A stretch of 64,000 nt of DNA from Pseudooceanicola nanhaiensis (GTDB lineage Bacteria > Pseudomonadota > Alphaproteobacteria > Rhodobacterales > Rhodobacteraceae), in contig NZ_JAIUZP010000008.1 of assembly GCF_020171315.1 (NCBI RefSeq), forward strand, positions 186,001 through 250,000. Direction: 5' to 3'. Shown here one piece after another: positions 44,847 to 64,000 of the stretch. How positions within the stretch are numbered: position 1 is the stretch's first letter; every line of letters begins with the position of its first letter. Under the pieces are notes generated by a model. That model did no database searches. It had not been told where the DNA came from and saw nothing but the letters and a program-made list of their open reading frames with translations. The translations under genes and the position numbers were made by a program.

Positions 44847-44873
44847 CGGGTGATCTGTGTACACCTCGCGAGG

Positions 44874-44903
44874 ATGTTGCGAGGGCCCGCGCCCACGCGT
44901 CAA
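44874..44903 (-). promoter_or_regulatory. Probable promoter of the ABC importer operon
   Basis: On the minus strand TTGACG (44903-44898) and CAACAT (44879-44874) are spaced by 18 bases, about 100 bp before the binding-protein start and just upstream of the palindrome at 44831-44846. Confidence 0.45.
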
Positions 44904-47030: not shown

Positions 47031-47168
47031 TTTGAACACATTCCGGTCAACCTTACGCTCCGAATCGTCTGCTTTAAGGAGGCTACCAACGAAGCGGCCC
47101 TGCTTCCGACCCAAAGTTCCTCAAGTGGCCCCCACCACCGGAACCCAAAGACCGAAGGACAGACCCAG

Positions 47169-47616: not shown

Positions 47617-48321
47617 TCAGCGGGCGCCAACCTGGAACAGAACGATGATGGCCGTCTTTGCCATGATCCGCAGATCGCCGACGAACGTGCGGTTTTCCAC
47701 GTAATCCACATCGAGGTCCACACGTTCAGCGTAGCTGGTGTTGGAGCGGCCGGAGACCTGCCATGCGCCGGTCAGGCCGGGACGCACGGATTTGTAGGCT
47801 TCGAAGTGATCGCCGTAGAAGCGGGCCTCTTCAGCCACCACCGGGCGCGGGCCAACGATCGACATGTCGCCGCGCAGCACGTTGATCAGCTGGGGCAGTT
47901 CGTCGAGCGAGCTCTTGCGCAGGAAATTTCCGAGGACGTGCAGACGCGGATCCTTGGTCAGCTTCCGCTGGGTGAGCCATTCCTGACGAATGACCTCGTC
48001 CTCTTCCAGAAGCTTGGCAAGACGTGCGTCGGCATCGCGCACCATGGTGCGGAACTTGAGGCATTTGAACGGCTTACCGTTCAGACCCACCCGCTCATGC
48101 GCAAAGAGGATCGGGCGACCGTCGGCAATCCAGATGACAAGCGCCACGCCCAGAAGGAACGGAGCAAAGAACAGGAGTGCGGCCGCAGACAAAACAACAT
48201 CAGTCAGGCGCTTCGGGTCGAGTTTCCGCGACCGGGCCTGCCCGCTGGTCGGCACAGGACGGAGCATCCCGAAGGGACGCTTCGCCTCGAACGCCGTGAG
48301 GTGATAATCTTCAACAGACAT
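47617..48321 (-). CDS. ExoY-like undecaprenyl-phosphate sugar phosphotransferase
   Basis: A 234-residue bacterial sugar transferase of the short ExoY/WbaP-C-terminal type. It has a membrane anchor (VVLSAAALLFFAPFLLGVAL), LKFRTMVRDAD, the LRKSSLDELPQLINVLRGD segment with the catalytic Asp-Glu pair, SIVGPRPVV, and RPGLTGAWQVSGRS. It transfers the first sugar phosphate to undecaprenyl phosphate, starting exopolysaccharide repeat assembly at the inner membrane. The start at 48321 (MSVEDYH) gives normal family length; an in-frame ATG at 48414 would add 31 unmatched residues. It is divergent from the flippase gene, so the two may share control. Confidence 0.9.
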   Translation of the reverse strand: MSVEDYHLTAFEAKRPFGMLRPVPTSGQARSRKLDPKRLTDVVLSAAALLFFAPFLLGVALVIWIADGRPILFAHERVGLNGKPFKCLKFRTMVRDADARLAKLLEEDEVIRQEWLTQRKLTKDPRLHVLGNFLRKSSLDELPQLINVLRGDMSIVGPRPVVAEEARFYGDHFEAYKSVRPGLTGAWQVSGRSNTSYAERVDLDVDYVENRTFVGDLRIMAKTAIIVLFQVGAR

Positions 48322-48677
48322 GAGCAGCTGGTCGCCGAAACGACCCCTTCCTATCAAATGTGCCCCCACACACCGAACTGGATAACGACGAGTTAACCTG
48401 TTGGGACGATTCACGCGACCGTTTCGAGATGGACAAACTGTTCACGTCACAAAAACAATCCGTTTAGGTCACCCTGCCAACACATTCTCGCCATGTTTCA
48501 GGGAGCTTAAACATAGTCGCTTTGTAATATGTGCCGCCACTGCTCTTCGGTATAGGTCAGCTACCCCGTTGAACACATTGACAGCTCGCAACCGCAAACG
48601 TTACTCCGGCTGCATCTACAGGCCTTCCCTAAACAAAACAAGGACTCTGGCGATCAAGCCCGAGTGAGCAACGCAAC
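48322..48677. other. Divergent regulatory region between ExoY-like and flippase genes
   Basis: About 356 bp with clearly lower GC than the rest of the window and no gene. It probably holds promoters for both directions. The only pair picked out with some support is on the plus strand (entry at 48578). Confidence 0.55.
48578..48606 (+). promoter_or_regulatory. Possible flippase promoter
   Basis: A perfect TTGACA at 48578-48583 is followed after 17 bases by TTACTC, a poor -10 match. It is 72 bases before the GTG start of the flippase gene. Confidence 0.35.
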
Positions 48678-50165
48678 GTGACGAGCGCCAAAGGTTCTGC
48701 CCCGTCCCGCCGCAAGGGGCTGATCGGGTCCGGTGTGATGACCGCGCTCGAGCGGGTGATTTCCCAAGCCTGCCAGCTGGCCATTTTCATCATTGCGGCG
48801 CGGCTTCTGTCGCCTGCCGAATTCGGCGCCTTTGCCCTTGTGTCCGCCATTGCCATCATCCTGCTGCGCGTGGCCGAGGTCGGATGGGCACCCTACATCA
48901 TGTCCTGGTCTGGCGATTCCCGCGTGCCCCGGCAGGTGCTGGCGCTTGCGATCCTCGCCGGTCTCGTCGTCGGCGCGGCTGGCGTGGCGATCGGCTATGC
49001 CCTGCCGCTGGCCGGGCTGGCGGTGGAGACGGGCCACCTCTTCTCCCTCTTCTCGTTCTGGGTCTTCCTCGCCACGATCTCCTCGGCGCAGAAGGGCGTG
49101 ATGATCTGGGAGAGCAAGCTGAAGGCCTCCGCCATCTGCGAGATCACCGGGGAACTGGCCGGGCTGGTCGTCGCGGTCACGGCGCTTCTGCAGGGCGCGG
49201 GGCTCTTCTCGCTGGCCTTCGGGCGGCTTGCCTATCAGAGCACCCATCTCGCGCTCAGCTTCGTCTTCACCCGCATGGCCCCCAGCCTGGGGATGCCCAA
49301 GGCCGAGCGGCGCGATCTCTGGGCCTTCTCTGCCCGGATGTTCACCAGCCGGCTGATCATCAACGTGCGCCTCTACGTGGCGACCTTCATTATCGGCGGG
49401 TTCCTCGGGCCGGCGGCCGTCGGCTATTACCGCGCGGCGGAACGGCTGGTCGGCGCGGTCGGAGAGATCGTGTCGGTGCCAACGCAGGTGCTGGCGTGGA
49501 ACCTCTTCCGTCAGGCCCGCGATGCCCATGACGGCACAACCGCCGGGTTCCAGTCCGCGGCCAACATCTTCTTCAAGATCCTCGCCGCCATCGCCCTGCC
49601 CGTCTTCATGTGGGTGGCCGTCATGGCCGGGGACATCGTGCATGGCCTGCTGGGCGAGGAATGGTTGCCCGCGCTGCACGTGGTCGCCATCCTCTCTGCC
49701 GCCCGGGCGATCGCCCTCGTCGGTGTCGTGACCGAGCCGGTGCTGACCATCGCCGGAGAGGTCGGGCGCCTGCCATGGCTCACCGCGCGGCTGATGATCG
49801 TCACCGTCGCCCTGACCCTTGGCGCCGCCACCACGGGCGGGCTGCTGGCCGTGGCCTGGGCTCAGGTGGCGATTGCGGCGATCACCCTTGTGATCACCCT
49901 GCCGATGCTGCGCCGCTATGCCGGGATCGACGGGCTGGAGGTCGCGGGCCATTGCACCCGCCTGCTGCTGCCCCTGGCGGCCGCGGCGGCCATCCTGCTC
50001 TGGGAGCGCGAGGCCGACCTGCTGCCGCAGATCAATCCGCTGCTCCATGCCTTCGTGGTGGCCCTGCCGTCGCTCGTGGTCTACGTTGCCCTGACCTTGT
50101 TGGTGGAACCCGCGCTGCGTGCCCCGATCCTCGCACGGCTGCGCCGCAGGAAGGGCGCGGCATGA
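48678..50165 (+). CDS. Wzx-like polysaccharide flippase (MOP superfamily)
   Basis: A 495-residue membrane protein with 12-14 predicted helices and the N-terminal pattern of polysaccharide exporters (LERVISQACQLAIFIIAARL, then SPAEFGAFALV). GPAAVGYYRAAERLV in the middle is typical of the group. It flips lipid-linked repeat units made after the ExoY-like step. The first codon is GTG with only a weak ribosome site; an ATG at 48738 is possible but would remove part of the first helix surroundings. The end overlaps the methyltransferase gene by 4 bp (ATGA). Confidence 0.88.
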   Translation: MTSAKGSAPSRRKGLIGSGVMTALERVISQACQLAIFIIAARLLSPAEFGAFALVSAIAIILLRVAEVGWAPYIMSWSGDSRVPRQVLALAILAGLVVGAAGVAIGYALPLAGLAVETGHLFSLFSFWVFLATISSAQKGVMIWESKLKASAICEITGELAGLVVAVTALLQGAGLFSLAFGRLAYQSTHLALSFVFTRMAPSLGMPKAERRDLWAFSARMFTSRLIINVRLYVATFIIGGFLGPAAVGYYRAAERLVGAVGEIVSVPTQVLAWNLFRQARDAHDGTTAGFQSAANIFFKILAAIALPVFMWVAVMAGDIVHGLLGEEWLPALHVVAILSAARAIALVGVVTEPVLTIAGEVGRLPWLTARLMIVTVALTLGAATTGGLLAVAWAQVAIAAITLVITLPMLRRYAGIDGLEVAGHCTRLLLPLAAAAAILLWEREADLLPQINPLLHAFVVALPSLVVYVALTLLVEPALRAPILARLRRRKGAA

Positions 50166-50950
50166 GTATTTTGGGACAGATGAAGCGCGGCGCAAAGCGC
50201 GCCGCCGAACCGGTGACGGCCGCCCTCGCGCGGGCCTCGGTCCATGGTCCGCGACCGCCGCGCTTTGCCGGGGCCTTTGACAGCTACGAGGCCGCTCTCG
50301 CCTCGCTCCCCGCCCGGACACTGGCCGGATACGACCACGACGAGGTGGCCGAGATCTCCTTCGAGGCGATGACGCGGGTCGAGCTTTGGGATTATCCCGT
50401 GTTCCACTGGATCGGCGCCCTGCTGCCCGAGGGCGGGTCCCTAGTCGATTTCGGCGGTCACATGGGGACCAAGCATATCGCCTTCGCCCCCTACCTCGAC
50501 ATGGCGCGCTATGACTGGACGGTCTGCGACCTGCCCGCGATCATCCGGGCGGCGCGGCGCGCGCAAGCCGCCGGTCGCCTGCCGGAAGCGATCCGCTTCG
50601 AGGATGACCTCGCGGCCTGCCCCGCGCCCGATCTCTTCCTCGCCTCCGGCGTGATGCAGTATTTCCCCGGCGGCCTCGGTGCCGTCCTCGCCCCGCTGGC
50701 CGCCCTGCCCGCGCGGGTGATCCTGAACAAGGTCGCCCTGCGCGACGGCCCTCAGGTGGTCACGCTGGAGAAGATCGGCGCCGCCCGCGTGCCCTATCAG
50801 ATCCGCTCCGAGGCGGCCTTCGTTGCCGAGATCGAAACGCTGGGCTACCGCATCGCCGACCGCTGGGAGATCGAGCCCCTGTCGCACCGCATCCCCACCC
50901 ATCCGCGACTCGGATCCAGCCGCAGCACCGGCTTTGTTCTGACACGGTAA
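50162..50950 (+). CDS. TIGR04325-like methyltransferase
   Basis: A 262-residue protein with a Rossmann-like start SLVDFGGHMGTKHIAFAPYL, YDWTVCDLP and LASGVMQYFPG. This order matches the TIGR04325 family of putative methyltransferases often found in polysaccharide clusters. The glycine motif DFGGHMG corresponds to SAM-binding motif I. It is translationally coupled to the flippase, so it probably methylates a sugar of the same polymer, though this is not shown. Confidence 0.72.
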   Translation: MSILGQMKRGAKRAAEPVTAALARASVHGPRPPRFAGAFDSYEAALASLPARTLAGYDHDEVAEISFEAMTRVELWDYPVFHWIGALLPEGGSLVDFGGHMGTKHIAFAPYLDMARYDWTVCDLPAIIRAARRAQAAGRLPEAIRFEDDLAACPAPDLFLASGVMQYFPGGLGAVLAPLAALPARVILNKVALRDGPQVVTLEKIGAARVPYQIRSEAAFVAEIETLGYRIADRWEIEPLSHRIPTHPRLGSSRSTGFVLTR

Positions 50951-51301: not shown

Positions 51302-51451
51302 ATGACCGTGAAGATCGACCACAAGCCGGACACGGCAAGAAAGATTGCTGCCCAGATCAAAGCAACCTCCGCGTGTGCGGCGGCCTATAATTTCTCCTTT
51401 GCCTTCAAACCCGCGCACAAGCCGGTGCGCGCCCCGTCCAGGAAGCACTGA
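51302..51451 (+). CDS. 49-aa ORF coupled to the NRPS-PKS gene
   Basis: ATG at 51302 has GAGG six bases upstream, and its TGA overlaps the start of the megasynthase (TGATG), so translation of the two is probably coupled. The peptide begins MTVKIDHKPDTARKIAAQIK, has one Cys, a short aromatic stretch (AYNFSFAF) and a basic end. It matches no family I know; it is not MbtH-like (no NxExQxSxWP pattern). It could be a leader for expression control or a small partner protein. A longer start at 51290 is possible. Confidence 0.55.
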   Translation: MTVKIDHKPDTARKIAAQIKATSACAAAYNFSFAFKPAHKPVRAPSRKH

Positions 51452-54400
51452 TGGCCCCTGACATGGACCTGCGGCTGGCCTTCGACCCTGCCGCCCCGAT
51501 CTATCCGCAGTTCGCCCGGATCGCCGCCCTGCGCGGTGAGGCGCCCGCGCTGCTGACCAGCGCCGGTCCCGTCTCCTATGCCGACCTCGCGGCACGGGCC
51601 GAGGCGGCGGCAGGCTGGCTGGTGGATCAGGGCGTCACCCGGGGGGCCTTCGTGGGCTTCCTCGGCGGTCGCTCGGTCGAGGCCGTGGTTGCCATGCTGG
51701 CCTGTTTCCGCGCAGGCGCCGCCTGCGTGCCGCTGGACCCGACCCATGCGCCGGAACAGCTGTCCTTCATCGCGGGCGACTGTGGGCTGGCGGCCTGTTT
51801 CCTCTCCACCGCCCATGCCGATCTGGCCGGTGAGACCCTCGCGCCCGACACCCCACGCATCGCGCTGACCGAGGCCGCGGCCCTGCCGCGCACGGCCCGC
51901 GACTGGCCCGAAGGGCACGGCGATGACGTGGCCTATCTCCTTTATACCTCCGGCACCACCGGCACGCCCAAGGGGGTGCTGACCCCGCAGCGCGCGGTGA
52001 CGGCGCTCGTCCTCGACCAGACGCTGACGCAGGTGCAGCCTCAGGACGTGATCCTGCACGCCTCCACCATCGCCTGTGACGGCGCGATCTACGACATCTG
52101 GGGCGGGCTTCTGACCGGGGCACAGGTTGCCGTGGTCGAGGCGGCCTTCCCCTCGCTCGACGACGTCGCCGCGGTGATGAAACGCAACCATGTAACCGTG
52201 GCGGGCTGGTACGCGGGCGTGCATCACCTGATGATCGAACATCACGTGGATGCCTTTGCCACCATGCGGCTGTCCATTGCCGGGGGCGACGTGATGTCGC
52301 CACCCCATGCCGCCAAGCTGGTGAAGGCCTGGCCGCAGATCACGCTGTGCAATGTCTTCGGGCCCACGGAATGCACCACCGACAGCCTCGGGCTGAAGGT
52401 CACGCCCGAACTGGCCGCCGCAGGGCCGCTGCCCATCGGCACGCCGCTAGCGCAGACCTTGGCCTTCGTGGTCGATCCCGAGGGTGTGCCCCTGCCTGCG
52501 GGTGAGGTGGGCGAGCTGGTCATCGGCGGCCCCGGTGTAGCGCTCGGCTATCACGGGCGGCCCGAGAAGACCGCAGAGGTCTTCATCCCGGATCCGCGCC
52601 CCGGCCATGACGGCATCGTCTATCGCACCGGCGATCTGGCCATGGAACGCGCCGACGGTGTCTTTGAATTCCACGGTCGCGCCGACCGTCAGGTCAAGCT
52701 GGCCGGTCGCCGGATCGAGCTGGACGGGGTCGAGCATGAGATCCGCACCGCCCCCGGCGTGGCCGATGCCATCGTCGACGTGACGGGCAGCGGCGAGGCG
52801 AAACATATGATCGCCTTCCTGCGCCCCGAGGCCCCCGTCACCGACGAGGCCGCCTTCACCCGCGCCGTGCTGGCCCATGCCGCGCAGAGCCTGCCGGAAA
52901 CCACGCTGCCCCGCACGCTGCACCTGCGCGAGAGCTTCCCCCTGACGCCCGCGGGCAAGGTCGACCGCCGCGCCCTGCGTGAGAGCCTGCCAAAGGCCAC
53001 CGCCCCCGCGCCCCACGCCAAGGCGCAGGGCATCCGCGCCATCGTCGGCGCGGTCTGGGACGAGATCCTGCACTGCGGCCCGGTCGCGGACGATGTCACC
53101 TTCTTCGAGGCCGGTGGCACCTCCATGGACCTGATCCGCGCCCATGCGGCGCTGGAAAAGCGGCTGGATACGAAATTCTCCATCACCCTGCTCTTCGAAG
53201 TGCCCCGCTTCGGCGCGCTCTGCGAGCGGCTGGCGAAGGCCGCGCCCGAGGTCTCGGGCCCGCTGCGCACGCGGGTGAAGGCCAACGAGCCCATCGCCAT
53301 CATCGGCATGGCGGGCCGCTTCCCCGGCTCCAAGGACATCGCCGCCTTCTGGGAGCACCTGAAGGCGGGCGACAACCTGATCCCGCATTTCTCGCCCGAG
53401 GAGATCGAGGACAATTATTCCCCCGCCGAACGCGCCATGGCGGCCTATGTCGCCGCGCGCCCGTGGCTGCCGGATGTGGACCTCTTCGACGCGAAGTATT
53501 TCAACATGCTGCCGCGCGAGGCCAAGGTGACGGACCCGCAGGGGCGCATCTTCCTTGAGGTCTGCCACGAGGCGCTGGAACAGGCCGCGCTCGACCCCAC
53601 CCGCTATCGCGGCGCCGTGGGGGTCTATGCCGGGTCGACCCAGTCGACCTACCTGCTCAACAACGTGCTGCAAAGCCGCGCGGAACTGGATCGCTTCCTC
53701 ACCGGCTTCCAGGTCGATGACTACACCCAGCTGACCGGCAACGACACCGACAGCATGGCGACGCGGATTTCCTACCGCCTTGGCCTCACCGGGCCTGCGC
53801 TTTCGGTGAACACCGCCTGCTCCACCTCGCTGGTGGCCATCGGTCAGGCCGTGGCCGCCCTGCGCGGCGGGCAGACCGACGTGGCGCTTGCGGGCGGGGT
53901 CTCCATCACTTTCCCGCAAAAGCGCGGCTACATGGCGATCGAGGGCGGCATGGCCGCACCCGATGGCGTCTGCCGTCCCTTCGATGCCGAGGGCGCAGGC
54001 ACGGTCTTCGGCCATGGCGCCGGAGTGATCGTGCTGAAACGGCTCTCCGATGCGGAGGCCGATGGCGACACTATCCTCGCGCTGATCAAGGGCGTGGGGC
54101 TGAACAACGACGGCGCGGACAAGATCTCCTACACCGCGCCCTCGGTCACCGGGCAGGCCATGGCGATCCGCATGGCGCATCAGGATGCCGAGGTCGAACC
54201 GGGCTCGGTCTCCTTCGTGGAATGCCACGGGACGGCCACGCCGCTTGGCGACCCGATCGAGATCGAGGGGCTGACGCAGGCCTTTGCGGGCTCCACCACC
54301 CCCTGCGCCCTTGGCGCGGTGAAGGGCAATATCGGCCACATGGATGCCGCTGCCGGCATCATGGGCGTGATCAAGACGGTGCTGGCGCTGCAACACAGGC

Positions 54401-57400
54401 AGATCCCGCCGGTGGCCAACTACCGCGCACCGAACCCGCGCATCGACTTCTCGCAGGGGCCGTTCTTCGTGGCCGATCACCTGATCGACTGGGACAGCGA
54501 CGGCCCGCGCCGCGCCGGTGTCTCCTCCTTCGGGGTTGGCGGCACGAACGCGCATATCCTGATGGAGGAGGCCCCGGCCCCCGCCGTTCAGACGCCCGCG
54601 ATGGACCGGCCGCAGGTGCTGCCGCTCTCCGCGAAATCGCCCGAGGCGCTCTCGCAGATGGCCGCCGAACTGGCCACTGCGCTGGAGGCCGAGGACGCGC
54701 CCGCGCTCTCCGCCGCCGCCTTCACGCTGCAGGAGGGCCGCCGCGCCCATCCGCTGCGCCTGACCGTGGCGGCCAGCACCAAGGCCGAGGCCGCGAGCGC
54801 CCTGCGCGCAGCACCCAGCCCCCGCAAGCCCGCGCCGCAGCAAGCACCGCAACTGGTCTGGATGTTCCCCGGCCAGGGCTCGCAATTCCCCGGCATGGGC
54901 CGTGGCCTCTACGAGAGCGAGCCGGTCTTCCGCGACACGATCGACGAGGGCGCCGCCCTGCTGGAGCCCCTTCTGGGCCTCGACATCAACCAGCTGCTCT
55001 GCTTCGGCGAGGTCTCGGATGCCGAGGCTGCCCGCGCCCTGCGCGACACCCGCCTGACCCAGCCCGCGCTCTACCTGACGCAGGTGGCGAATGCCCGGCT
55101 GTGGCTGTCGCGCGGGATCACGCCGGACCGGATGATCGGCCATTCCGTCGGGGAATTCGCCGCCGCCACCGTGGCTGGCGTCATGTCCTTCGCCGACGGG
55201 CTGCGGATCATCGCCGAACGTGGCCGCCTGATGCAGGACCTGCCCGGCGGGGCCATGCTGGGCGTGAAGGCCAAGGCCGAAGAGATCGCGCCCTTCCTCT
55301 CCGACGCCGTCCAGCACGCCGCGCGCAATGCGCCCGGTCTGCAGGTGCTGGCAGGGCCCTTCGATGCCATCGAGGCTGTGGAGGCGCAGCTGACGCAGGC
55401 GGGCCTCGCCTACTCGCGGCTGCACACGTCCCACGCCTTCCACTCGGCCATGATGGACCCGGTGGTGGCCCCCCTGCGCGAGACCGTGGCGAAGATGACC
55501 CTCGCCGCACCGCAGATCCCCGTCACCTCCTCGGTGACCGGCGAGGCGCTTGACGCACAGGCCACCGATCCCGGCTACTGGGCCGCGCAGGCCCGCGCCT
55601 GTGTCGACTTCCGGGCCGCCCTCTCTGCCGCCGCCGAAGGGGCGGTGCTGATGGAGATGGGCGCGGGCACGACGCTATGCGCCTTCGCCCGCCAGACCCT
55701 GGGCCGCGACCATGGTGCAACGCCCGTCCAGACCCTGCCGGATCATTCCCGTGCCGGTCAGGATGCCCTCGTTTCGGCGCAGGCCGCCGGCCAGCTCTGG
55801 TCGCTGGGCCTGCCGCTCGACTGGGCGAAACTCGGTCCCCGCGATGCCCGCCGGGTGCCGCTGCCGACCTATGCCTTCCAGCGCAAATCCTACTGGATCG
55901 AACGGAAGGTGCCTGACGCCGCGCCGGTGCAGGCCGCCGCCGCGCCGCCCGATCCCCTACTGACCGCGCCACCCCCGGTGGCCGCCCCGCAATTCCAAGA
56001 GCAGTCCATAGAAACAACCGTTACCAGTGAGCCCCAGATGTCCGCACCGCGTACCGACCGACTGACCACTGACCTGATCGCCCTCTTCTCCACCCTCTCC
56101 GGCGAGGATTACACGCCCGAGGATGCGGGGGTGCCCTTTCTCGAACTCGGCCTCGACAGCCTCTTCATGGGGCAGCTGAGCCAGGGGCTCGCCAAGGAAT
56201 ATGGCGTCGAGATCGGCTTCCGCGAGCTGATGGCGAACTGGCCGACGATGGAGGCTCTGGCCGCCCACCTCGACGAGATGCTGCCGCCCGAGGCCGCGCC
56301 TGTCGCAGCGCCCGCGCCTGCTGCCCCCGTGGCCGCAGCGCCGGCCCCGGTCGCTGCCGCCACGGCCCCGGCACCCACCGCTGCCCCCGTTACGGCCCCC
56401 GCGATGCCCGCCGCCGCCGGTGACATGGCCGCGCTGATGCAAAGCCAGATGGCGACCATGCAGGCGATCTTTGCCGAACAGATGCGCGCCCTCGGAGGTG
56501 CCCCGGCTGCTGCTGCCCCGCAGGCCGCGATCCCCGCGCCCGTGGCGGCCCCGGCTCCGGCTCCTGTCGCGGCCCCTGTCGCGGCACCGGCACCCGCCGC
56601 CGCAGCACCGGCAGCCACCCCGGCAGAGAAACCGGCCAAGAAAGAGTTCAAGACCGGCCGCGGTGCCTCGGTCACCGGCGGTGAGTTCGACGCCAGCCAG
56701 CTGGCCTTCGTGAAGGACCTCTGCGCCCGCTACACGGACAAGCATCCGAAATCCAAGGCCTACACCCAGCAGTACCGCAAGCCGCTGGCCGACCCGCGGA
56801 CCGCCGCCGCCTTCCGGCCCGAGTGGAAAGAGCTGACCTTCCCCATCGTGGCCGAGATCTCGAAGGGCGCGCATATCACCGACATCGACGGCAACGACTA
56901 TGTCGACGTGGTGAACGGCTTCGGCCAGACGGCGTTTGGCCATTCGCCCGATTTCGTGGTGGACGCGGTGAACCGCCAGATGGAACGCGGCTTCCCCATC
57001 GGCCCGCAGGCCGACGAGGCCGGGCCGCTGGCCGCGCGCCTGTCGGAATGGCTGGGTCATGACCGGATCACCTTCTGCAACACCGGCTCCGAGGCAGTGA
57101 TGGCCGCCATGCGCGTGGCCCGCACCGTGACGGGCCGCGAGAAGATCGTGGTCTTCGGCAACGACTACCACGGCCAGTTCGACGAGGTGCTGATCAAGGG
57201 CAAGGCGCGTTCCGGCGGTGAGCCGACGGCGCTGCCGATCGCACCGGGCATCCCGCGTTCGGGCCTCGCCAACATGGTCGTCGTGAACTACGGCGGGCAG
57301 GACAGCCTCGACTGGATCACCAACAACATCAAGGACATCGCCGCCGTGATCGTGGAGCCGGTGCAATCGCGCCATCCCGAACACCGCCCCGAGGACTTCG

Positions 57401-60400
57401 TGCGTGAACTGCGCCGCATCACCGCCGACGGCGGCGCGGCGCTGGTGATTGACGAGGTCGTCACCGGCTTCCGCACCTCCAAGACCGGGCAGCAGGGCGT
57501 CTGGGGCATCAAGCCCGACATGGCGACCTACGGCAAGGTTCTGGGCGGCGGCATGCCCATCGGCCTGCTGGCGGGCTCCTCCAAGTTCATGGATGCGCTC
57601 GACGGCGGCGACTGGCAGTTCGGCGACGACAGCCAGCCCGAGGCGATCCCGACCTTCTTTGCCGGCACCTTCGTGCGTCACCCGCTGATCCTCGCGGCGC
57701 TGACCGCCACGCTGGATCACATGGAAACGCCCGAGGGCGCGGCGCTCTGGACCGATGTGGCCGACCGCTGCAAGATCCTCGGCGACCGCATGAAACAGGC
57801 CATGACCGACCGTGGCCTGCCGGTGCTGGTCGAGCAATATTCCAGCTGGTTCGTCATCAAGGTGACCGAGGAAGACCCGCGTGCCTCGCTGCTCTATCCG
57901 CTGATGCGGATGGAGGGCGTGCACATCATGGACGGCTTCTGCGGCTTCCTGACCACGACCCATTCGGCGGCTGACATCGAACGGATCTACACCGCCTTCT
58001 GCACGGCGCTGGACACGCTGCTGGACAATGGCATCCTCGTGCACCTGCGCGATCCCAACTGGCAGCCGAAGCTGACCGGCGAGCAGCTGAAGGGCATCCC
58101 GCTGACCGAGGGCCAGTCCGAGATCTGGATGACGCACCAGATGGGCGGCAAGGCCGCCGCCAGCTTCAACGAGAGTGCCTCGCTTTTCATGGAGGGCCCG
58201 CTGAACCAGTCCGCGCTGGAAGCGGCGCTGAGCGATCTCGTCGCCCGGCATGATGCCCTCCGCGCGCGCTTTGCCCGCTCCGGCATGTCCTTCGACATCC
58301 TCGACGCGGCGCCTGTCACCCTCGACCTGATCGACCTCAGTGGCGAGGCCGAGCCCGAGGCCGCTTACCGCGAGGCGCTCGCGGCCGACGTGGCCGAGCC
58401 CTTCACCCTCACCGACGCCGACCCGCTGCGCCTGTCGCTCTTCAAGCTGGCCGAAGACAAGCACGTCCTGATCTTCACCGCGCACCATATCATTGCCGAT
58501 GGCTGGTCCTTCGGGGTGCTCTTCGACGATCTGAACGCGCTCTACACGGCCCATGCCGAGGGCAAATCCGCCAATCTGCCCGCCGCGCCCTCCTTCGCCG
58601 CCCATGCGCGCAAGGAAGCCGGCAAGCAACCGGCGGGTGAGACGCTGGCCTATTGGCGCGAGACCTTCGCCGATGTGCCCGCCCTGCCCGAACTGCCCAC
58701 CGACCGCCCGCGCGGCGAACGGCGGGTCCATGACGGTGCCACCGCCACGGCCTTCGTGCCGCTGGACGTGGCGAAGGCCGTGCGCAAGGCCGGCGCGAAA
58801 CAGGGCTGCACCCTCTTCGCCACGCTCTTTGGTGCGTTGCAGATGATGGTGGGCCGGATGGCCGGCACCTCGGACGTGGTGCTGGGTGTGCCCACGGGCG
58901 GCCAGGCGCTGCTGGCGAACCAGTCGCTGGTGGGACACTGCGTGAACTTCCTGCCGGTGCGCGCCGCCTTCGACATGCAGGCCCCGGTGGCCGATCACCT
59001 CAAGGCGCTGTCGTCCAAGCTGCTGGAGGCGTTTGACCATCAGGAGATCACCTATGGCACGCTGGTGCGCGCGCTGGAGGTGCCCCGCACCCTCAACCGC
59101 CTGCCCCTGACCGAGATCGAGTTCAACGTCGAACGCTACTCCGACGAGGGCGGCATGGCGGGGCTCACCACCCATGTGGAGCCGAACCCCAAGGCGGCGG
59201 TGAACTTCGACCTCTTCTTCAACGTCTGCGAAGTGTCGGAGGGGCTGCGCCTTGACCTGCACTACAACAGCCACCTCTTCGACGCCCAGACCGCCGACCG
59301 CCTGCTGGCCCGCTTCCGGGGCGTGATGGAGGCGATTGCCGCCGACACCGCGCAGCCCGTGGCTGCCCTGCCGGTGCAGGATGCCGAGGAAGCCGCCAAG
59401 GCCGCCGCGATCAGCGACACGCTGAACGCCACCGCCCGCGCCTATGACCTGACGCAGACCCTGCCTGCGCTGACCCGGGCCACCGCTGCAACCCACGCAG
59501 GCAACGTCGCCGTGGAATGCGCCGGCGCACGCCTGACCCATGGCGAGCTGGATGCGAAATCCGATGCGCTTGCCGCGCTGATCCAGTCCCGGCTGGGCGC
59601 GCAGAAGACCCGCGTGGGCGTCGCCCTGCCACGCTCGACCGACATGCTGGTGGCGCTGCTGGCGGTGCAGAAGGCGGGCCATGCCTATGTGCCCCTCGAC
59701 CCGCGCCAGCCCGCCGCCCGCCTGCGCTCGATCCTGGAGACGGCGGAAGCCGCCGCGGTGGTCACGCTGGACAGCGCGCCCGACTATGCCGAGGGCCTTG
59801 GCCTGCCGCTGATCTCGCCCGCCGAAGCAACCGCCGGGGCCACGCCCGCGCCGGTCGCCCTCGACGCGCAGGACCCGGCTTACGTGATCTTCACCTCCGG
59901 CTCGACCGGCACGCCCAAGGGTGTGGAGATCCCGCATGCAGCCGTGGTGAACTTCCTGCACTCCATGGCCGAGGCGCCCGGTTTCACCGCCGCCGACACG
60001 ATCCTCTCGGTCACGACGGTCATGTTCGACATCGCGGTGCTGGAGCTTTACCTGCCGCTGATCACCGGGGGCCGCGTGGTCATCGCCACCTCCGAGGAGG
60101 TGATCGAGGGCTTCCCGCTGGTCAAACGCATGGCGCAGGGTGACATCACCGTCATGCAGGCCACGCCGACGCTCTGGGACATGCTGCTGGATGCGGGTCT
60201 GAAACCTGCTGCCGGTCTCAAGTGCCTCGCCGGTGGCGAACCGCTGCCGCAGGACCTCGCCGACAAGCTGCGCCGGGACGGCGCCACGCTCTGGAACATG
60301 TACGGCCCGACCGAGACGACGATCTGGTCGACCGTCAAGCAGATCGACGGCGTGGTCAGCGCAGGCCATCCGATCGCCAACACCACGCTGCACATCCTCG

Positions 60401-61242
60401 ATGAGCAGGACCGCCCGCTGCCCGTGGGCACCGTGGGGGAGCTGAACATCGGCGGCGACGGTCTGGCGCTTGGCTACTACAACCGCCCCGACCTGACCGA
60501 GGCCGCCTTCCGCCCTGTCACGATCGACGGCACGGCACAGCGGCTCTACCGCACCGGGGACCTGGCGAAAATCACCGCCGCCGGTGAGGTCGAGATCCTC
60601 GGCCGGATCGACACGCAGGTGAAACTGCGCGGCTTCCGCATCGAACTGGGCGAGATCGAGACCCGGCTGCGTGCCTGCGAGGGTGTCGACAAGGCCGCCG
60701 TCGCGCTGAAGGCCCGGCCCAACGGGGACAAGCAGCTGGTGGCCTATATCGTGCCCGCAGGTGCCGCTCCCGAGGCTGCCGCGCTGTCGGCCACGCTGGC
60801 GGGCACCCTGCCCGACTACATGGTGCCGCGCGCCTATGTGACGCTCGACGCGCTGCCCCAGACGGCCAACGGCAAGCTTGACCGCAAGAACCTGCCCGAA
60901 CCGGTCGAGGCCGTGCAGGCCGCCCCCGCCGCCGCACAGGCCCCGGCCACCGAGACAGAGACCCGGCTGGCCAAGATCTGGGCCGATGTGCTGGGGCTGG
61001 AAAGCGTCGGCGTGACCGACACGCTCTATGCCATGGGTGCCGACAGCCTGATGGTCTTCCGCATCGCCGCGCGCATGCTGGACGAGGGTCTGAACCTCGA
61101 GGCCAAGGACATGCTGGCCCATCCGACGATCCGTGAGCTGGCGGCCTTTGCCGACAGCCGCGGCGATGCGGAAGCCCCCAAGCGGCCCTCCCTGCGCGAC
61201 TTCCGCAAGGGTGCCCGCCGGAACGAGGTGAAAGCATCATGA
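51451..61242 (+). CDS. Hybrid NRPS-PKS megasynthase with built-in aminotransferase (A-T-KS-AT-T-AMT-C-A-T)
   Basis: A 3,263-residue assembly line. A1 (residues 30-520: LLYTSGTTGTPKG, YRTGDLA, TPAGKVDRRAL). T1 (GGTS, Ser558). KS (610-1040: active Cys790 in TACSTSL, ECHGTATPLGDP, KGNIGHMDAAAG). AT (1134-1435: Ser1232 in GHSVGE; HAFHS suggests malonyl-CoA). T2 (Ser1570). An Ala/Pro linker of about 125 residues. A class III PLP aminotransferase (1790-2190: Lys2029 in YGKVLGGG). C (2210-2645: HHIIADG, His2346). A2 (2665-3150: VIFTSGSTGTPKGVE, RGFRIELGEIE, NGKLDRKNL). T3 (Ser3199). No KR, DH, ER or TE. The expected chemistry is a starter amino acid, C2 extension, conversion of the beta-keto group to a beta-amine, then amide formation with the A2 amino acid, probably glycine. 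The KS-AT-T-AMT order recalls mycosubtilin-type synthases. The product is unknown. Confidence 0.95.
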   Translation: MAPDMDLRLAFDPAAPIYPQFARIAALRGEAPALLTSAGPVSYADLAARAEAAAGWLVDQGVTRGAFVGFLGGRSVEAVVAMLACFRAGAACVPLDPTHAPEQLSFIAGDCGLAACFLSTAHADLAGETLAPDTPRIALTEAAALPRTARDWPEGHGDDVAYLLYTSGTTGTPKGVLTPQRAVTALVLDQTLTQVQPQDVILHASTIACDGAIYDIWGGLLTGAQVAVVEAAFPSLDDVAAVMKRNHVTVAGWYAGVHHLMIEHHVDAFATMRLSIAGGDVMSPPHAAKLVKAWPQITLCNVFGPTECTTDSLGLKVTPELAAAGPLPIGTPLAQTLAFVVDPEGVPLPAGEVGELVIGGPGVALGYHGRPEKTAEVFIPDPRPGHDGIVYRTGDLAMERADGVFEFHGRADRQVKLAGRRIELDGVEHEIRTAPGVADAIVDVTGSGEAKHMIAFLRPEAPVTDEAAFTRAVLAHAAQSLPETTLPRTLHLRESFPLTPAGKVDRRALRESLPKATAPAPHAKAQGIRAIVGAVWDEILHCGPVADDVTFFEAGGTSMDLIRAHAALEKRLDTKFSITLLFEVPRFGALCERLAKAAPEVSGPLRTRVKANEPIAIIGMAGRFPGSKDIAAFWEHLKAGDNLIPHFSPEEIEDNYSPAERAMAAYVAARPWLPDVDLFDAKYFNMLPREAKVTDPQGRIFLEVCHEALEQAALDPTRYRGAVGVYAGSTQSTYLLNNVLQSRAELDRFLTGFQVDDYTQLTGNDTDSMATRISYRLGLTGPALSVNTACSTSLVAIGQAVAALRGGQTDVALAGGVSITFPQKRGYMAIEGGMAAPDGVCRPFDAEGAGTVFGHGAGVIVLKRLSDAEADGDTILALIKGVGLNNDGADKISYTAPSVTGQAMAIRMAHQDAEVEPGSVSFVECHGTATPLGDPIEIEGLTQAFAGSTTPCALGAVKGNIGHMDAAAGIMGVIKTVLALQHRQIPPVANYRAPNPRIDFSQGPFFVADHLIDWDSDGPRRAGVSSFGVGGTNAHILMEEAPAPAVQTPAMDRPQVLPLSAKSPEALSQMAAELATALEAEDAPALSAAAFTLQEGRRAHPLRLTVAASTKAEAASALRAAPSPRKPAPQQAPQLVWMFPGQGSQFPGMGRGLYESEPVFRDTIDEGAALLEPLLGLDINQLLCFGEVSDAEAARALRDTRLTQPALYLTQVANARLWLSRGITPDRMIGHSVGEFAAATVAGVMSFADGLRIIAERGRLMQDLPGGAMLGVKAKAEEIAPFLSDAVQHAARNAPGLQVLAGPFDAIEAVEAQLTQAGLAYSRLHTSHAFHSAMMDPVVAPLRETVAKMTLAAPQIPVTSSVTGEALDAQATDPGYWAAQARACVDFRAALSAAAEGAVLMEMGAGTTLCAFARQTLGRDHGATPVQTLPDHSRAGQDALVSAQAAGQLWSLGLPLDWAKLGPRDARRVPLPTYAFQRKSYWIERKVPDAAPVQAAAAPPDPLLTAPPPVAAPQFQEQSIETTVTSEPQMSAPRTDRLTTDLIALFSTLSGEDYTPEDAGVPFLELGLDSLFMGQLSQGLAKEYGVEIGFRELMANWPTMEALAAHLDEMLPPEAAPVAAPAPAAPVAAAPAPVAAATAPAPTAAPVTAPAMPAAAGDMAALMQSQMATMQAIFAEQMRALGGAPAAAAPQAAIPAPVAAPAPAPVAAPVAAPAPAAAAPAATPAEKPAKKEFKTGRGASVTGGEFDASQLAFVKDLCARYTDKHPKSKAYTQQYRKPLADPRTAAAFRPEWKELTFPIVAEISKGAHITDIDGNDYVDVVNGFGQTAFGHSPDFVVDAVNRQMERGFPIGPQADEAGPLAARLSEWLGHDRITFCNTGSEAVMAAMRVARTVTGREKIVVFGNDYHGQFDEVLIKGKARSGGEPTALPIAPGIPRSGLANMVVVNYGGQDSLDWITNNIKDIAAVIVEPVQSRHPEHRPEDFVRELRRITADGGAALVIDEVVTGFRTSKTGQQGVWGIKPDMATYGKVLGGGMPIGLLAGSSKFMDALDGGDWQFGDDSQPEAIPTFFAGTFVRHPLILAALTATLDHMETPEGAALWTDVADRCKILGDRMKQAMTDRGLPVLVEQYSSWFVIKVTEEDPRASLLYPLMRMEGVHIMDGFCGFLTTTHSAADIERIYTAFCTALDTLLDNGILVHLRDPNWQPKLTGEQLKGIPLTEGQSEIWMTHQMGGKAAASFNESASLFMEGPLNQSALEAALSDLVARHDALRARFARSGMSFDILDAAPVTLDLIDLSGEAEPEAAYREALAADVAEPFTLTDADPLRLSLFKLAEDKHVLIFTAHHIIADGWSFGVLFDDLNALYTAHAEGKSANLPAAPSFAAHARKEAGKQPAGETLAYWRETFADVPALPELPTDRPRGERRVHDGATATAFVPLDVAKAVRKAGAKQGCTLFATLFGALQMMVGRMAGTSDVVLGVPTGGQALLANQSLVGHCVNFLPVRAAFDMQAPVADHLKALSSKLLEAFDHQEITYGTLVRALEVPRTLNRLPLTEIEFNVERYSDEGGMAGLTTHVEPNPKAAVNFDLFFNVCEVSEGLRLDLHYNSHLFDAQTADRLLARFRGVMEAIAADTAQPVAALPVQDAEEAAKAAAISDTLNATARAYDLTQTLPALTRATAATHAGNVAVECAGARLTHGELDAKSDALAALIQSRLGAQKTRVGVALPRSTDMLVALLAVQKAGHAYVPLDPRQPAARLRSILETAEAAAVVTLDSAPDYAEGLGLPLISPAEATAGATPAPVALDAQDPAYVIFTSGSTGTPKGVEIPHAAVVNFLHSMAEAPGFTAADTILSVTTVMFDIAVLELYLPLITGGRVVIATSEEVIEGFPLVKRMAQGDITVMQATPTLWDMLLDAGLKPAAGLKCLAGGEPLPQDLADKLRRDGATLWNMYGPTETTIWSTVKQIDGVVSAGHPIANTTLHILDEQDRPLPVGTVGELNIGGDGLALGYYNRPDLTEAAFRPVTIDGTAQRLYRTGDLAKITAAGEVEILGRIDTQVKLRGFRIELGEIETRLRACEGVDKAAVALKARPNGDKQLVAYIVPAGAAPEAAALSATLAGTLPDYMVPRAYVTLDALPQTANGKLDRKNLPEPVEAVQAAPAAAQAPATETETRLAKIWADVLGLESVGVTDTLYAMGADSLMVFRIAARMLDEGLNLEAKDMLAHPTIRELAAFADSRGDAEAPKRPSLRDFRKGARRNEVKAS

Positions 61243-64000
61243 GCACGCCCACCGCAAAGACCCCGCAGGGGATCGTCGCCGAATTCCCGGCCTCGGCCAC
61301 GCAGAAGCGCTGCTGGTTCCTCGACCAGATGCGCCCCGGCAACCCGGCGCTGAACGTCGCGGTCCGCTGGGAGCTGCGCGGCAATGTCTCGGCCAAGGTG
61401 CTGGAGGAGGCGTTCCAATACGTCATCGCCCGGCATGAGGTGCTGCGCACCCGGCTGGTCGAGGGCGAAGACGGCCCGGTGCAGCAGGTCGCCGCCTCGG
61501 TCGAATTCAAGCTCGACCAGGTGGACATCCGCGCCGCCGTGCAGGGCGATCCGCTGCTGCGGGTCGATGCCATCGCCCGCGAGAATGCCGAGCGGCCCTT
61601 CGATCTCTCCAAGGCCGGGCTACTGCGCGCCACGCTGGTGCGCTTCGAGGCCGACCGCGCCATGCTGCTGATCGTGGCGCACCAGAGCTGCTTTGACGGC
61701 TATTCCATCGGCGTGCTGGGCCGCGAGATCGGCATCGCTGCCGATGCGATCAACCGCGGGGTGGAGCCCGATCTGCCTGAACTCCCGCTGCAATACGGCG
61801 ACTATGCGCTGTGGCAGCAGGAATACCTCTCCTCCGGCGTGCTGGACGAGGAGACGGAGTATTGGACCGCCGCGCTCCATGACATGCGGTATTTCGAGAT
61901 CGAGCCCGACCGGGCCCGCCCCGCCGTGCGTTCGGTCGAGGGCGCGCAGGTCGACATGGACCTGCCGCCCGACTTCGGCGACCGGCTGGCCAAGGCCGCG
62001 CAGGCGCGCGGCATGTCCACCTTTGCCTTCGGCTGTGCCGTCTTCTCGGCCGCGCTGCAGCGGATGACCGGCGAAAGCGACGTCAGCTTCGGCAGCCAGA
62101 TCGCGGGCCGCAACGATGTCGACCTCGAGCCGCTGATCGGCGTCTTCATCAACAACCTCGTGCTGCGCTTCGACGTGGACCCGGCGAAACCCTTCGCCGC
62201 CCATCTCGATCAGGCCAAGGAGGTCGTCACCGGGGCGCTCAGCCACCAGACGATGCCCTTCAACCAGCTGGTGCAGGTGCTGAACCCGGTCCGCGATGCA
62301 GGCCGCAATCCGCTGATTTCGATCAACTTCAACCTCCAGACCGTGTTCATGAAGACGCAGGAGTACGAGGGCTTCGCGCTGCGCTCCTCGCCCAGCCATG
62401 CGCCGGGCGCGGTCTATGACATGGACGTGGCCGTCATCGGCCGTCCGACCGGCTGGCAAATGAACGCGGAATACCAGTCGCAGCTCTTCGAGGCCGAGAC
62501 GATCGCCGCCTTCCTCGACCTGCTGGCGCAGGCCTTCGAACAGGCCTTCGCCGAGGCCGAGAAACCGATTGCCACGCTGCCCCTGCCCGAACGGCTCGCC
62601 AACCGGCGCGACCGGTCCTCGCGGGCGCTCTCTCGCGTCGAGGAGGCCCTTGCCGCCCATGCCTACGTGGCCGAGGCCGCCGCGATCTCGGACGGGACGG
62701 AGACCTATGGCTTCGTCACGCCCGCGCCCGGCACGACCGTGGCGCTGGAGACCCTGCCCGAGGTGCTGATGGATCACCTCGCCCAGAAACTGGCCGAGGC
62801 CGACATGCCGCGCGGTGTCTCGGTGCTCGCCCTGTTGCCGCGCAAGCAGAACGGCGCGCTGAACCGCGCCCTGCTGCGCCCGCCCGCGCAGCGCCGGGGC
62901 ACCGCCCGCGCCGCCCGCCGTGCCGTCGATCCCGAGGTCGCGGCCCGTATTCGCGGCATCTGGCAGGAGCTTCTGGGGCTGGAGACGGTGCCCGACACCG
63001 CCAGCTTCTTCGACCTCGGCGGCGACAGCCTGCTGACGGTGCGGATGCTGACCCGCATCCGCGAGGCCTATGGCCTCGAACTGGGGATCGCGACGGCCTA
63101 TGAATATCCCACGCTGACCACGCTCACCGGCGCGGTCTGGGAGCGGCTGAGCGCGAAGGAAGAGGCCACCCCGGCCGAGCCCGACTGGCGCATCCTGCCG
63201 CTGCGCAAGGACGGCGCCGGCGTGCCGCTGATCTCGGTCAACAACGCGGCCACGCCGATGGCGCTTGCGCAGGACGGCACCACGCCGCGCAAGGCCACCT
63301 GCGTGCGGCTCTTCGAGGGCGATCACGGTCTCGACCAGACCGACCGCAGCTTCGAGGAGGTGGCCCGCGAATATGCCGACCTCGTCCGCGAGGCGCAGCC
63401 CGAGGGGCCCTATCTCTTCTACGGCAACTGCGTGCACGGCAACCTCGCGCTGGAGACCGCGCGCATCCTCCATGCCGAGGGCGCGGAGATCGCAGGCGTG
63501 ACCATGAAGGACGTCTGGGAGCCGGGCTATGCCGAGGCGCTCCTGAAGGACCCCAAGATGCGCAAGGCCGAGAAGTGGCAGGCGCTGCGCAACCGCATCC
63601 GTATGGTGCGCGAGGGCGAGATGTCCTTCTGGGCGATGCTGGACATGTACCGCGCCGCCCGCAAGACCGGGATCGTGCATATGGCCGAGGCGCTCGGGCT
63701 CTACAACCGCGCCCATGCCTCCGACCTGGAGGAGGAGCAGCAGCGCGCGATCAGCTACCTCTCCAAGGCGCGCGATGCCTACCGGCCTGCGCCGGTGGAC
63801 TTCCCCGTGCTCCACGTGGTGACCGAGATCACCCCGCAGGGCAGCGGCTTCTCTCCCTCCATCGGCTGGGAAAAGGTCGTGGCGGAGGGCCAGCTGAAGA
63901 CGGTGCATATCCCCAAGGTCAGCGTCGTGGGCAACAAGCGGTCCGGAACCGAGGCCTTCGCGCAGGAGATCGAGACCTTCCTCGCGGAGCGGGACGCGGC
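61239..64000 (+). CDS. Second NRPS protein: degenerate C, remnant A, T, Cys-type thioesterase (3' end outside window)
   Basis: The frame starts in an ATGA overlap with the megasynthase stop and stays open for 920 residues to the window end. Residues 15-440 form a condensation domain whose HHxxxDG motif reads HQSCFDG (148-154), with Gln149 in place of the catalytic His. Residues of about 465-555 correspond only to the C-terminal subdomain of an adenylation domain; its A10 motif reads KQNGALNRALL, lacking the usual Lys of NGKxDR. A normal carrier domain follows (GGDSLLTVRML, Ser597). From about 645 comes an alpha/beta-hydrolase thioesterase in which the nucleophile elbow reads YGNCVHGN with Cys731 instead of Ser. 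It probably releases the product. The last residues of the thioesterase lie beyond the window. Confidence 0.9.
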   Translation, partial: MSTPTAKTPQGIVAEFPASATQKRCWFLDQMRPGNPALNVAVRWELRGNVSAKVLEEAFQYVIARHEVLRTRLVEGEDGPVQQVAASVEFKLDQVDIRAAVQGDPLLRVDAIARENAERPFDLSKAGLLRATLVRFEADRAMLLIVAHQSCFDGYSIGVLGREIGIAADAINRGVEPDLPELPLQYGDYALWQQEYLSSGVLDEETEYWTAALHDMRYFEIEPDRARPAVRSVEGAQVDMDLPPDFGDRLAKAAQARGMSTFAFGCAVFSAALQRMTGESDVSFGSQIAGRNDVDLEPLIGVFINNLVLRFDVDPAKPFAAHLDQAKEVVTGALSHQTMPFNQLVQVLNPVRDAGRNPLISINFNLQTVFMKTQEYEGFALRSSPSHAPGAVYDMDVAVIGRPTGWQMNAEYQSQLFEAETIAAFLDLLAQAFEQAFAEAEKPIATLPLPERLANRRDRSSRALSRVEEALAAHAYVAEAAAISDGTETYGFVTPAPGTTVALETLPEVLMDHLAQKLAEADMPRGVSVLALLPRKQNGALNRALLRPPAQRRGTARAARRAVDPEVAARIRGIWQELLGLETVPDTASFFDLGGDSLLTVRMLTRIREAYGLELGIATAYEYPTLTTLTGAVWERLSAKEEATPAEPDWRILPLRKDGAGVPLISVNNAATPMALAQDGTTPRKATCVRLFEGDHGLDQTDRSFEEVAREYADLVREAQPEGPYLFYGNCVHGNLALETARILHAEGAEIAGVTMKDVWEPGYAEALLKDPKMRKAEKWQALRNRIRMVREGEMSFWAMLDMYRAARKTGIVHMAEALGLYNRAHASDLEEEQQRAISYLSKARDAYRPAPVDFPVLHVVTEITPQGSGFSPSIGWEKVVAEGQLKTVHIPKVSVVGNKRSGTEAFAQEIETFLAERDA

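What the first reader, a model, noticed from the sequence alone, without database searches (positions are those of the whole stretch)
51451..61242. NRPS-PKS line predicted to make a beta-amino product
Seen: KS-AT-T followed directly by a PLP aminotransferase with intact Lys and no ketoreductase, then C-A-T. Known: the same order in mycosubtilin-type synthases turns a beta-keto thioester into a beta-amine. Inference: with an amino acid starter the intermediate would be a 3,4-diamino acyl chain, then joined to the A2 residue.
Basis: partly seen in the sequence, partly recalled or inferred. Interest (0 to 1): 0.78.

Follow-up and report, generated by a model that had tools for sequence, protein, structure and literature searches.

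The report
Polysaccharide-locus assembly line making beta-amines
A marine bacterium carries a two-protein assembly line predicted to turn an amino acid into a small double-amine unit joined to glycine, and here and in most relatives checked those genes sit among or near genes that build the cell's outer polysaccharide, which hints at an unrecognised way of making or decorating such coats.

Summary
One 3,263-aa ORF (51451-61242) is A-T-KS-AT-T-AMT-C-A-T with intact motifs, no ketoreductase, and an aminotransferase closest in the PDB to mycosubtilin synthase's. The chemistry (amino acid + malonyl, beta-keto to beta-amine, a 3,4-diaminoacyl chain) is inferred. A2 reads as glycine, with the same pocket pattern in 26 of 26 Rhodobacterales lines of the window's clade and 9 of 9 Rhizobiales; the starter pocket varies (15 codes in 20 loci).

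(1) The line continues into the next gene, a degenerate terminal protein: C domain with HQSCFDG for HHxxxDG, only an A-domain C-terminal stub, T, and a cysteine thioesterase. Relatives show decay down to C-TE. (2) The line lies inside an exopolysaccharide (EPS) locus. In 40 of 55 carrier genomes an EPS sugar-transferase gene lies within 25 kb (1.6 expected); Jannaschia sp. M317 keeps nearly the same gene order.

Best reading: an EPS-linked NRPS-PKS making a 3,4-diaminoacyl-glycyl unit, perhaps a polysaccharide substituent; no product or acceptor is shown. Similar layouts were listed in 2013 without product. New variant of a known kind.

The parts
51451..53010 (+). A1, starter adenylation domain, pocket code DGYGIGVTDK (substrate not assignable)
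   Evidence: Pfam AMP-binding; motifs; code by anchors
53011..53286 (+). T1 carrier, FFEAGGTS
   Evidence: PP-binding, motif
53287..54759 (+). KS with Cys and both His motifs
   Evidence: Pfam, motifs
54856..55773 (+). AT, GHSVGE and SHAFHS, malonyl type
   Evidence: Pfam, motifs
56116..56370 (+). T2 carrier, FLELGLDS
   Evidence: PP-binding, motif
56716..58020 (+). AMT, class III PLP aminotransferase; Lys in YGKVLGGG (57529-57552)
   Evidence: Pfam Aminotran_3, PDB match 6kfm, alignment
58096..59394 (+). C1 condensation domain, AHHIIADG
   Evidence: Pfam, motif
59479..60876 (+). A2 adenylation domain, code DILQLGMIWK (glycine, code table recalled)
   Evidence: Pfam, code
60964..61149 (+). T3 carrier
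   Evidence: PP-binding
61281..62591 (+). C2 in the second gene (61239-64007): motif AHQSCFDG, Gln where the catalytic His is usual
   Evidence: Pfam, alignment of relatives
62637..62855 (+). A-domain remnant: AMP-binding_C stub only, no AMP-binding core
   Evidence: Pfam; modelled with helices and strands at pLDDT mostly above 80
62946..63134 (+). T4 carrier, FFDLGGDS
   Evidence: Pfam, motif
63201..64000 (+). TE with Cys nucleophile GNCVHG (63423-63440); gene ends at 64007, outside the window
   Evidence: Pfam Thioesterase; alignments
50165..50950 (+). TIGR04325-family methyltransferase (start codon not settled)
   Evidence: NCBIfam 6.9e-48
48678..50165 (+). Wzx-type oligosaccharide flippase
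   Evidence: Pfam Polysacc_synt_3 1.4e-30
47617..48414 (-). EPS-initiating sugar transferase (Bac_transf)
   Evidence: whole-genome hit G000:C8:233638-234213, over cut-off; NCBIfam WbaP/EPS_sugtrans below their cut-offs
46152..47114 (-). glycosyltransferase (weak EPS-family matches)
   Evidence: NCBIfam 2.4e-08, below cut-off
44995..46149 (-). acyltransferase 3 family membrane protein
   Evidence: Pfam Acyl_transf_3 5.1e-25

Best explanation
A two-protein NRPS-PKS built into a Wzx/Wzy-type exopolysaccharide locus. Shown by sequence: domain order, intact motifs in protein 1, degenerate terminal protein 2, a PPTase gene beside it, EPS genes on both sides, conservation of this layout. Inferred: A1 loads an alpha-amino acid on T1; KS-AT extends it with malonyl; AMT turns the beta-ketone into an amine (3,4-diaminoacyl-S-T2); C1 joins it to glycine on T3. 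Protein 2 no longer adds a residue of its own: its A core is gone, the catalytic-His position of C2 varies among relatives, and some relatives lack even T. Its cysteine TE takes the chain and releases or transfers it. Because the line is held inside the EPS locus, I think it most likely that the dicationic diaminoacyl-glycyl unit ends up on the polysaccharide or its lipid-linked precursor. This last step is the least certain.
For: Domains and motifs; AMT closest to mycosubtilin synthase AMT. A2 code DILQxG[MLV][IV]WK in 26 of 26 Rhodobacterales lines of the window's clade and 9 of 9 Rhizobiales. Terminal protein: AMP-binding_C stub only; the second-His position of C2 is not His in 33 of 42 crown loci (Q in 8 of 15 main-type Rhodobacterales, N in 7 and Y in 1 of 10 second-type, Q in 9 of 9 Rhizobiales, S, A or Q in 8 of 8 C-TE loci); no T serine in those 8 of 8 Burkholderia/Reyranella/Novosphingobium-type loci; TE nucleophile Cys in 42 of 42 crown loci. 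EPS link: sugar transferase within 25 kb of the AMT in 40 of 55 genomes, 1.6 expected; the window-type Wzx has exactly one match in 20 of 20 Rhodobacterales genomes, within about 23 kb of the line in 19, and lies on the line's contig in 8 of 9 Rhizobiales; control NRPS loci 3 of 23. Annotated plasmids repeat the locus: Jannaschia sp. M317 has nearly the window's gene order; Loktanella and two Rhizobium similar gene sets. In 18 of 20 genomes the line's two C domains are the only ones found.
Against: No product and no acceptor is known. 15 of 55 genomes show no sugar transferase within 25 kb in the (cut) list, among them all four Reyranella-type ones; the window-type Wzx has no match in 6 of 36 genomes, all outside Rhodobacterales and Rhizobiales. 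The TE of the window's own type lacks the canonical His in 15 of 15 loci, so transfer or hydrolysis by it is doubtful. C2 keeps His in 9 of 42 crown loci, so it may still condense there. A1 substrate is unknown; four Rhodobacterales lines (L028, L049, L060, L132) lack A1 in the gene. Two distant Rhodobacteraceae AMT lines (L098, L104; AMT 45 and 44% identical) do not show the glycine code.
Confidence: 0.45

Rival explanations
1. Free small metabolite: the line makes a diffusible 3,4-diaminoacyl-Gly acid, amide or cyclic form (for example a seven-membered lactam of the beta-amine with the glycine carbonyl), a signal, chelator or inhibitor made together with the biofilm matrix but not part of it.
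For: A TE-like domain is kept; the starter pocket is highly variable, 15 codes in 20 Rhodobacterales loci, as expected of a diversified signal or weapon; a CocE/NonD-type hydrolase that could process a product lies within the stretch fetched in 10 of 21 line loci and beside two annotated lines.
Against: In the five annotated loci no transporter gene lies between or directly beside the synthase genes; those further off are a sugar ABC and a TRAP system (Jannaschia), a DMT transporter (CZR27) and an RND pair 11 kb away (Loktanella). The tie to EPS genes in several orders is then unexplained.
Confidence: 0.33
2. T4 is charged in trans by A1 or A2 and C2 still condenses, giving a longer peptide such as diaminoacyl-Gly-Gly, like the A-less module of AmbE in AMB biosynthesis (recalled).
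For: T4 serine kept in all 34 Rhodobacterales and Rhizobiales loci counted; the second His of C2 kept in 9 of 42 crown loci; a relative (L070) has a full C-A-T-TE whose A has the glycine code.
Against: Another residue stands at the catalytic-His position in 33 of 42 crown loci, the window included; T absent in 8 of 8 C-TE relatives.
Confidence: 0.15
3. AMT is silent and the amino beta-keto thioester cyclises to a tetramic acid or is released unaminated.
For: A free gamma-amine on a beta-ketoacyl thioester can cyclise (recalled chemistry).
Against: The PLP lysine is invariant and mean column identity is 75% in 12 aligned AMT sequences; AMT is present in all 56 handles searched (one genome twice), though these were chosen for carrying the line.
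Confidence: 0.04

Closest known systems
Mycosubtilin/iturin-type synthases (MycA AMT; PDB 6kfm, 6kfu)
   Same: KS-AT-T-AMT-C-A-T order (mycosubtilin's recalled); AMT domain its closest solved relative
   Different: Starter is an A domain with the amino-acid pocket Asp instead of a fatty acyl ligase (recalled for mycosubtilin); A2 is Gly; short line; EPS locus
AMT-containing NRPS/PKS catalogued by Milano et al. 2013 (PMC3870968, Table 2: Pedobacter A-CP-KS-AT-CP-PLP1, Thiorhodococcus, Thiocapsa, Salinisphaera)
   Same: Same core order; Gly predicted in the Pedobacter and Thiocapsa clusters
   Different: No product, no EPS link and no terminal-module decay in the parts I saw (abstract, section 7, passages)
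AmbE-type A-less terminal C-T-TE (recalled)
   Same: Terminal C-T-TE without its own A domain
   Different: C2 catalytic His replaced in most lines counted, T lost in some, Cys TE
Glycopeptide X-domain (C fold with degenerate motif; PDB 4tx2, 4tx3)
   Same: C fold; Foldseek ranks 46 and 15 for the protein 2 model
   Different: Ordinary C domains score as well or better, and no P450 is annotated in the five plasmid stretches
Wzx/Wzy-type EPS loci
   Same: Sugar transferase, flippase, Wzc-type kinase and GTs around the line
   Different: EPS loci are not known to me to hold an NRPS-PKS as a standing member

Membership tests
AMT-containing PKS/NRPS (beta-aminating, mycosubtilin-like) | class III AMT fused behind KS-AT-T, PLP lysine intact | tested here: met
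AMT-containing PKS/NRPS (beta-aminating, mycosubtilin-like) | no ketoreductase in the module | tested here: met
   no KR model hit
AMT-containing PKS/NRPS (beta-aminating, mycosubtilin-like) | beta-amine formed on the carrier | not testable with these tools
   needs biochemistry
Iturin/mycosubtilin lipopeptide synthases | fatty acyl-AMP ligase starter | tested here: not met
   A1 has the amino-acid pocket Asp (DGYGIGVTDK) and its best PDB matches are peptide-synthetase A domains
Wzx/Wzy-type EPS locus | initiating sugar transferase, flippase, Wzc-type co-polymerase, glycosyltransferases | tested here: met
   (glycosyltransferases by weak NCBIfam matches)
Wzx/Wzy-type EPS locus | Wzy polymerase | tested here: inconclusive
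   Wzy_C E 0.005, below cut-off
Wzx/Wzy-type EPS locus | outer-membrane exporter (Wza/SLBB) in the locus | not tested
   annotated in Rhizobium sp. SL42, CCGE531 and Rhodobacter sp. CZR27, not looked for around the window
A-less terminal module charged in trans (AmbE-like) | competent C with HHxxxDG, and T | tested here: inconclusive
   T4 present but C2 reads HQSCFDG; other lines HH, HN, HY, HS or HA; T absent in 8 of 8 C-TE loci
X-domain | degenerate C fold recruiting a P450 | tested here: inconclusive
   degenerate motif seen; no P450 annotated in five loci; recruitment not testable here

The most novel reading that the evidence does not exclude
An NRPS-PKS works as the decorating arm of an exopolysaccharide system: it makes a 3,4-diaminoacyl-glycyl group with a lineage-specific side chain, and a stripped terminal protein (non-condensing C domain plus cysteine TE, with or without T) hands it to the polysaccharide or its lipid-linked precursor, giving a cationic coat.
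Probability: 0.3. Interest if true: 0.85.

Novelty: new variant of a known kind. Interest (0 to 1): 0.6.

Why it matters
If true, assembly-line chemistry would be a standing part of some EPS systems in Alphaproteobacteria, Burkholderia relatives and Xanthomonadales, explaining a cryptic cluster that in 18 of 20 tested Rhodobacterales genomes holds the only condensation domains found. It predicts cationic, amino-acid-derived EPS substituents that vary by starter, testable by composition analysis of a single deletion mutant. The series from full C-A-T-TE to C-TE also suggests a terminal NRPS module decaying while its C and cysteine-TE domains are kept, a way to study non-condensing C domains.

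Tried and rejected
Reading the line as ending at 61242: rejected, the next gene is its terminal protein. Reading the 267-aa ORF behind it as a gene: rejected, it has no family match and the opposite strand codes a PPTase. A1 substrate: no assignment, the code fits none of those I recall. Foldseek on the protein 2 model (pLDDT 79.8, 17 sequences): ordinary C domains and X-domains score alike, so it does not decide the C2 function. A protein family beside 19 lines, whose member L055:17371-19014 bears a GINT1_N domain: function not found. C2 tree (FastTree): second-type (divergent-gene) terminal proteins nest inside the main type, while on the AMT tree their lines fall in two places, so the terminal gene or its TE may have been exchanged; left open. 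A first attempt to count the TE His used a wrong column and was redone. The flank clustering contains antisense ORFs of the synthase genes; I used only families named by Pfam.

Limits. The 55 genomes are 21 of the 24 found (G334 and G185 have only distant C-domain matches; G203 was added) and 34 of the 80 loci, chosen by me for contig length and likeness to the window's architecture; one duplicate genome (G391 = G062) was dropped. In one search the match list was cut, so near neighbours may be missing and 40 of 55 is a lower bound. The 1.6 expected assumes uniform placement and genome sizes rounded to 0.1 Mb. Control NRPS loci were counted by contig; G203 and G185 give ten of the 23, several on short contigs, which lowers their chance of a neighbour. 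In one search I left out three duplicate loci and three tails that do not align; five distant loci (two with Ser, three with Cys nucleophile) are outside the 42. The 26 rows of Rhodobacterales on the AMT tree hold one genome twice (L050 and L131). 'Crown' means the 42 loci of the four groups counted.
Full report
OBSERVATION. The ORF at 51451-61242 codes one 3,263-aa protein. Pfam gives A-T-KS-AT-T-AMT-C-A-T and no reducing domain. Active-site motifs are present in KS, AT (HAFH, malonyl type, recalled), AMT, C1, both A domains and all three T domains. The AMT domain matches mycosubtilin synthase subunit A in the PDB with 364 bits, next kind 177 bits, and its lysine is invariant in 12 of 12 aligned sequences, the window and 11 relatives.

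The next gene starts at 61239 and ends at 64007, seven bases outside the window. Pfam finds Condensation, PP-binding, Thioesterase and AMP-binding_C, but no AMP-binding core. A convergent PPTase gene and a CocE/NonD-type hydrolase gene follow. C2 reads HQSCFDG where active C domains have HHxxxDG (catalytic role of the second His recalled). In 42 crown loci this position is His in 9 (7 of 15 main-type Rhodobacterales, in one of which the first His is Asp, and 2 of 10 second-type) and Q, N, Y, S or A in 33. The first His and the DG are invariant in a 17-sequence alignment. In 8 of 8 Burkholderia, Reyranella and Novosphingobium-type loci no T domain is found and the protein is C-TE. Outside this crown, L070 (Marinobacterium) still has C-A-T-TE with HHIICDG and a glycine-type A, and L065 has C-A-T-TE with HQIVSDG and an unreadable A code. 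The AMT tree puts Rhodobacterales (26 rows, one genome twice, 100/97) beside Rhizobiales (9 rows, 100/99), then the C-TE loci (not shown to be one clade), then the gammaproteobacterial lines. So a full terminal module seems to have decayed stepwise, while C and TE were kept.

THE TE. The nucleophile is Cys in 42 of 42 crown loci; Ser stands in two of the five distant loci read beside them. In the window's type (15 of 15) the canonical His is absent and a His stands two residues after the Cys; in the other 27 of 27 the canonical His is present and that extra His is not. Whether the extra His can serve is unknown; I had no coordinates of the AF2 model (mean pLDDT 79.8) to measure.

SUBSTRATES. 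Ten-residue codes were read by motif anchors (numbering and code table recalled). A2 is DILQLGMIWK, a glycine code; the pattern DILQxG[MLV][IV]WK holds in 26 of 26 Rhodobacterales lines of the window's clade and 9 of 9 Rhizobiales lines (one position unread in L127 and L128). It does not hold in Reyranella-type loci, in Novosphingobium (L059), or in two distant Rhodobacteraceae lines (L098, L104). A1 keeps the amino-acid Asp but varies: 15 codes in 20 Rhodobacterales loci. Outside, Val-, Thr- and Pro-like codes occur (assignments recalled). Four Rhodobacterales lines (L028, L049, L060, L132) begin at T1, without A1 in the gene.

THE SETTING. Around the window line lie an acyltransferase, a glycosyltransferase-like protein, a sugar transferase, a Wzx flippase and a TIGR04325 methyltransferase upstream, and downstream, outside the window, a GT4-like protein, a Wzc-type kinase, a weakly Wzy-like protein and a pyruvyl-transferase-like protein (5.5e-13, below cut-off). 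Families found next to relatives in two or more groups include sugar transferase, flippase, GT4 and Wzc-type proteins. In whole genomes the EPS sugar transferase (1-6 copies per genome) lies within 25 kb of the AMT in 20 of 24 Rhodobacterales, 8 of 9 Rhizobiales-type, 4 of 9 of the next group and 8 of 13 Xanthomonadales-type and remaining genomes: 40 of 55, 1.6 expected. Other NRPS loci of Rhodobacterales: 3 of 23. The window-type Wzx has one match in 20 of 20 Rhodobacterales genomes, within about 23 kb of the line in 19; it is on the line's contig in 8 of 9 Rhizobiales (a ninth has a weak match there), and 6 of 36 genomes, from other orders, have none. Annotated plasmids show the locus by name: Jannaschia sp. 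M317 has acyltransferase, GT, GT, sugar transferase, flippase, TIGR04325, NRPS/PKS, C-domain protein, PPTase, GT, tyrosine autokinase, hypotheticals, and a pyruvyl transferase, nearly the window's order. Loktanella salsilacus, Rhizobium sp. SL42 and CCGE531 and, less completely, Rhodobacter sp. CZR27 agree. Rhizobium loci add a DegT-type aminotransferase (8 of 9), which could supply an amino sugar as acceptor (inference).

DISTRIBUTION. 24 of 390 genomes of the order, drawn evenly from a larger group, match protein 2 at E <= 1e-60, 12 of them along nearly the full length. In 18 of 20 tested carriers the line's two C domains are the only ones found in the genome. 21 of 217 plasmid records with a match cover at least 80% of the AMT-C-A query.

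MECHANISM. Shown: architecture, motifs, decay series, EPS setting. Inferred from established PKS/NRPS chemistry: amino acid + malonyl gives a 4-amino-3-keto thioester, AMT gives the 3,4-diamino thioester, C1 adds glycine. Least certain: release or transfer by protein 2, and the polysaccharide as acceptor.

KNOWN WORK. Milano et al. 2013 (PMC3870968; I saw the outline with abstract, section 7 and passages) lists the A-T-KS-AT-T-AMT order with predicted monomers only. PMC5563371 (passages) treats Pseudovibrio hybrid clusters likened to colibactin. PMC10584327 (passages) reports an uncharacterised NRPS-like/T1PKS hybrid in 18 of its species; the passages give no domain order (in Roseibaca domitiana two genes of 4,527 and 6,333 nt, unlike the window), so I cannot say whether some are this line. 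Searches for EPS together with NRPS/PKS, for vicinal diamines or diamino products and for Pseudooceanicola showed no description in their listings; apart from these three papers none was opened. The library lacks most subscription journals, so a published product cannot be excluded.

CHECK.

VERDICT. Real, chemically interpretable, in print as an architecture, and more interesting for its EPS setting and its degenerate terminal protein than for the beta-amine alone.

Noticed in passing
window 63423-63443 and relatives: Perfect exchange in the Cys-TE: 15 of 15 window-type loci have His at nucleophile+2 and no canonical His; 27 of 27 other crown loci the reverse.
   Followed up: partly
window 10966-36267 (-): A giant ORF of 8,433 aa, repetitive, with a LEPRHLLSAD stretch near its start; looks like a very large surface or adhesin-type protein (by eye).
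   Followed up: no
L004:816-2594 (just right of the window): CocE/NonD (S15) hydrolase with a signal-like N-terminus (by eye), near 10 of 21 mapped lines and in two annotated loci; possible processing enzyme.
   Followed up: partly
L055:17371-19014: Member of a family found at 19 lines, directly behind the C-T-TE gene in this Rhizobium; GINT1_N domain, no recognised N-terminal half (only this member scanned).
   Followed up: partly
L028, L049, L060, L132: Lines that begin at T1-KS without A1 in the gene; the starter must be loaded in trans or by another route.
   Followed up: no
L140:1-1597: Curli genes lie within 20 kb of the line in Rhizobium sp. CCGE531.
   Followed up: no
window 36524-44896 (-): By eye: a sulfatase/phosphatase-like protein and an oligopeptide-type ABC transporter set.
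   Followed up: no
L004:13751-16301: By eye: an aminotransferase and a phosphonoacetate-hydrolase-like gene, likely 2-aminoethylphosphonate breakdown, beyond the EPS locus.
   Followed up: no
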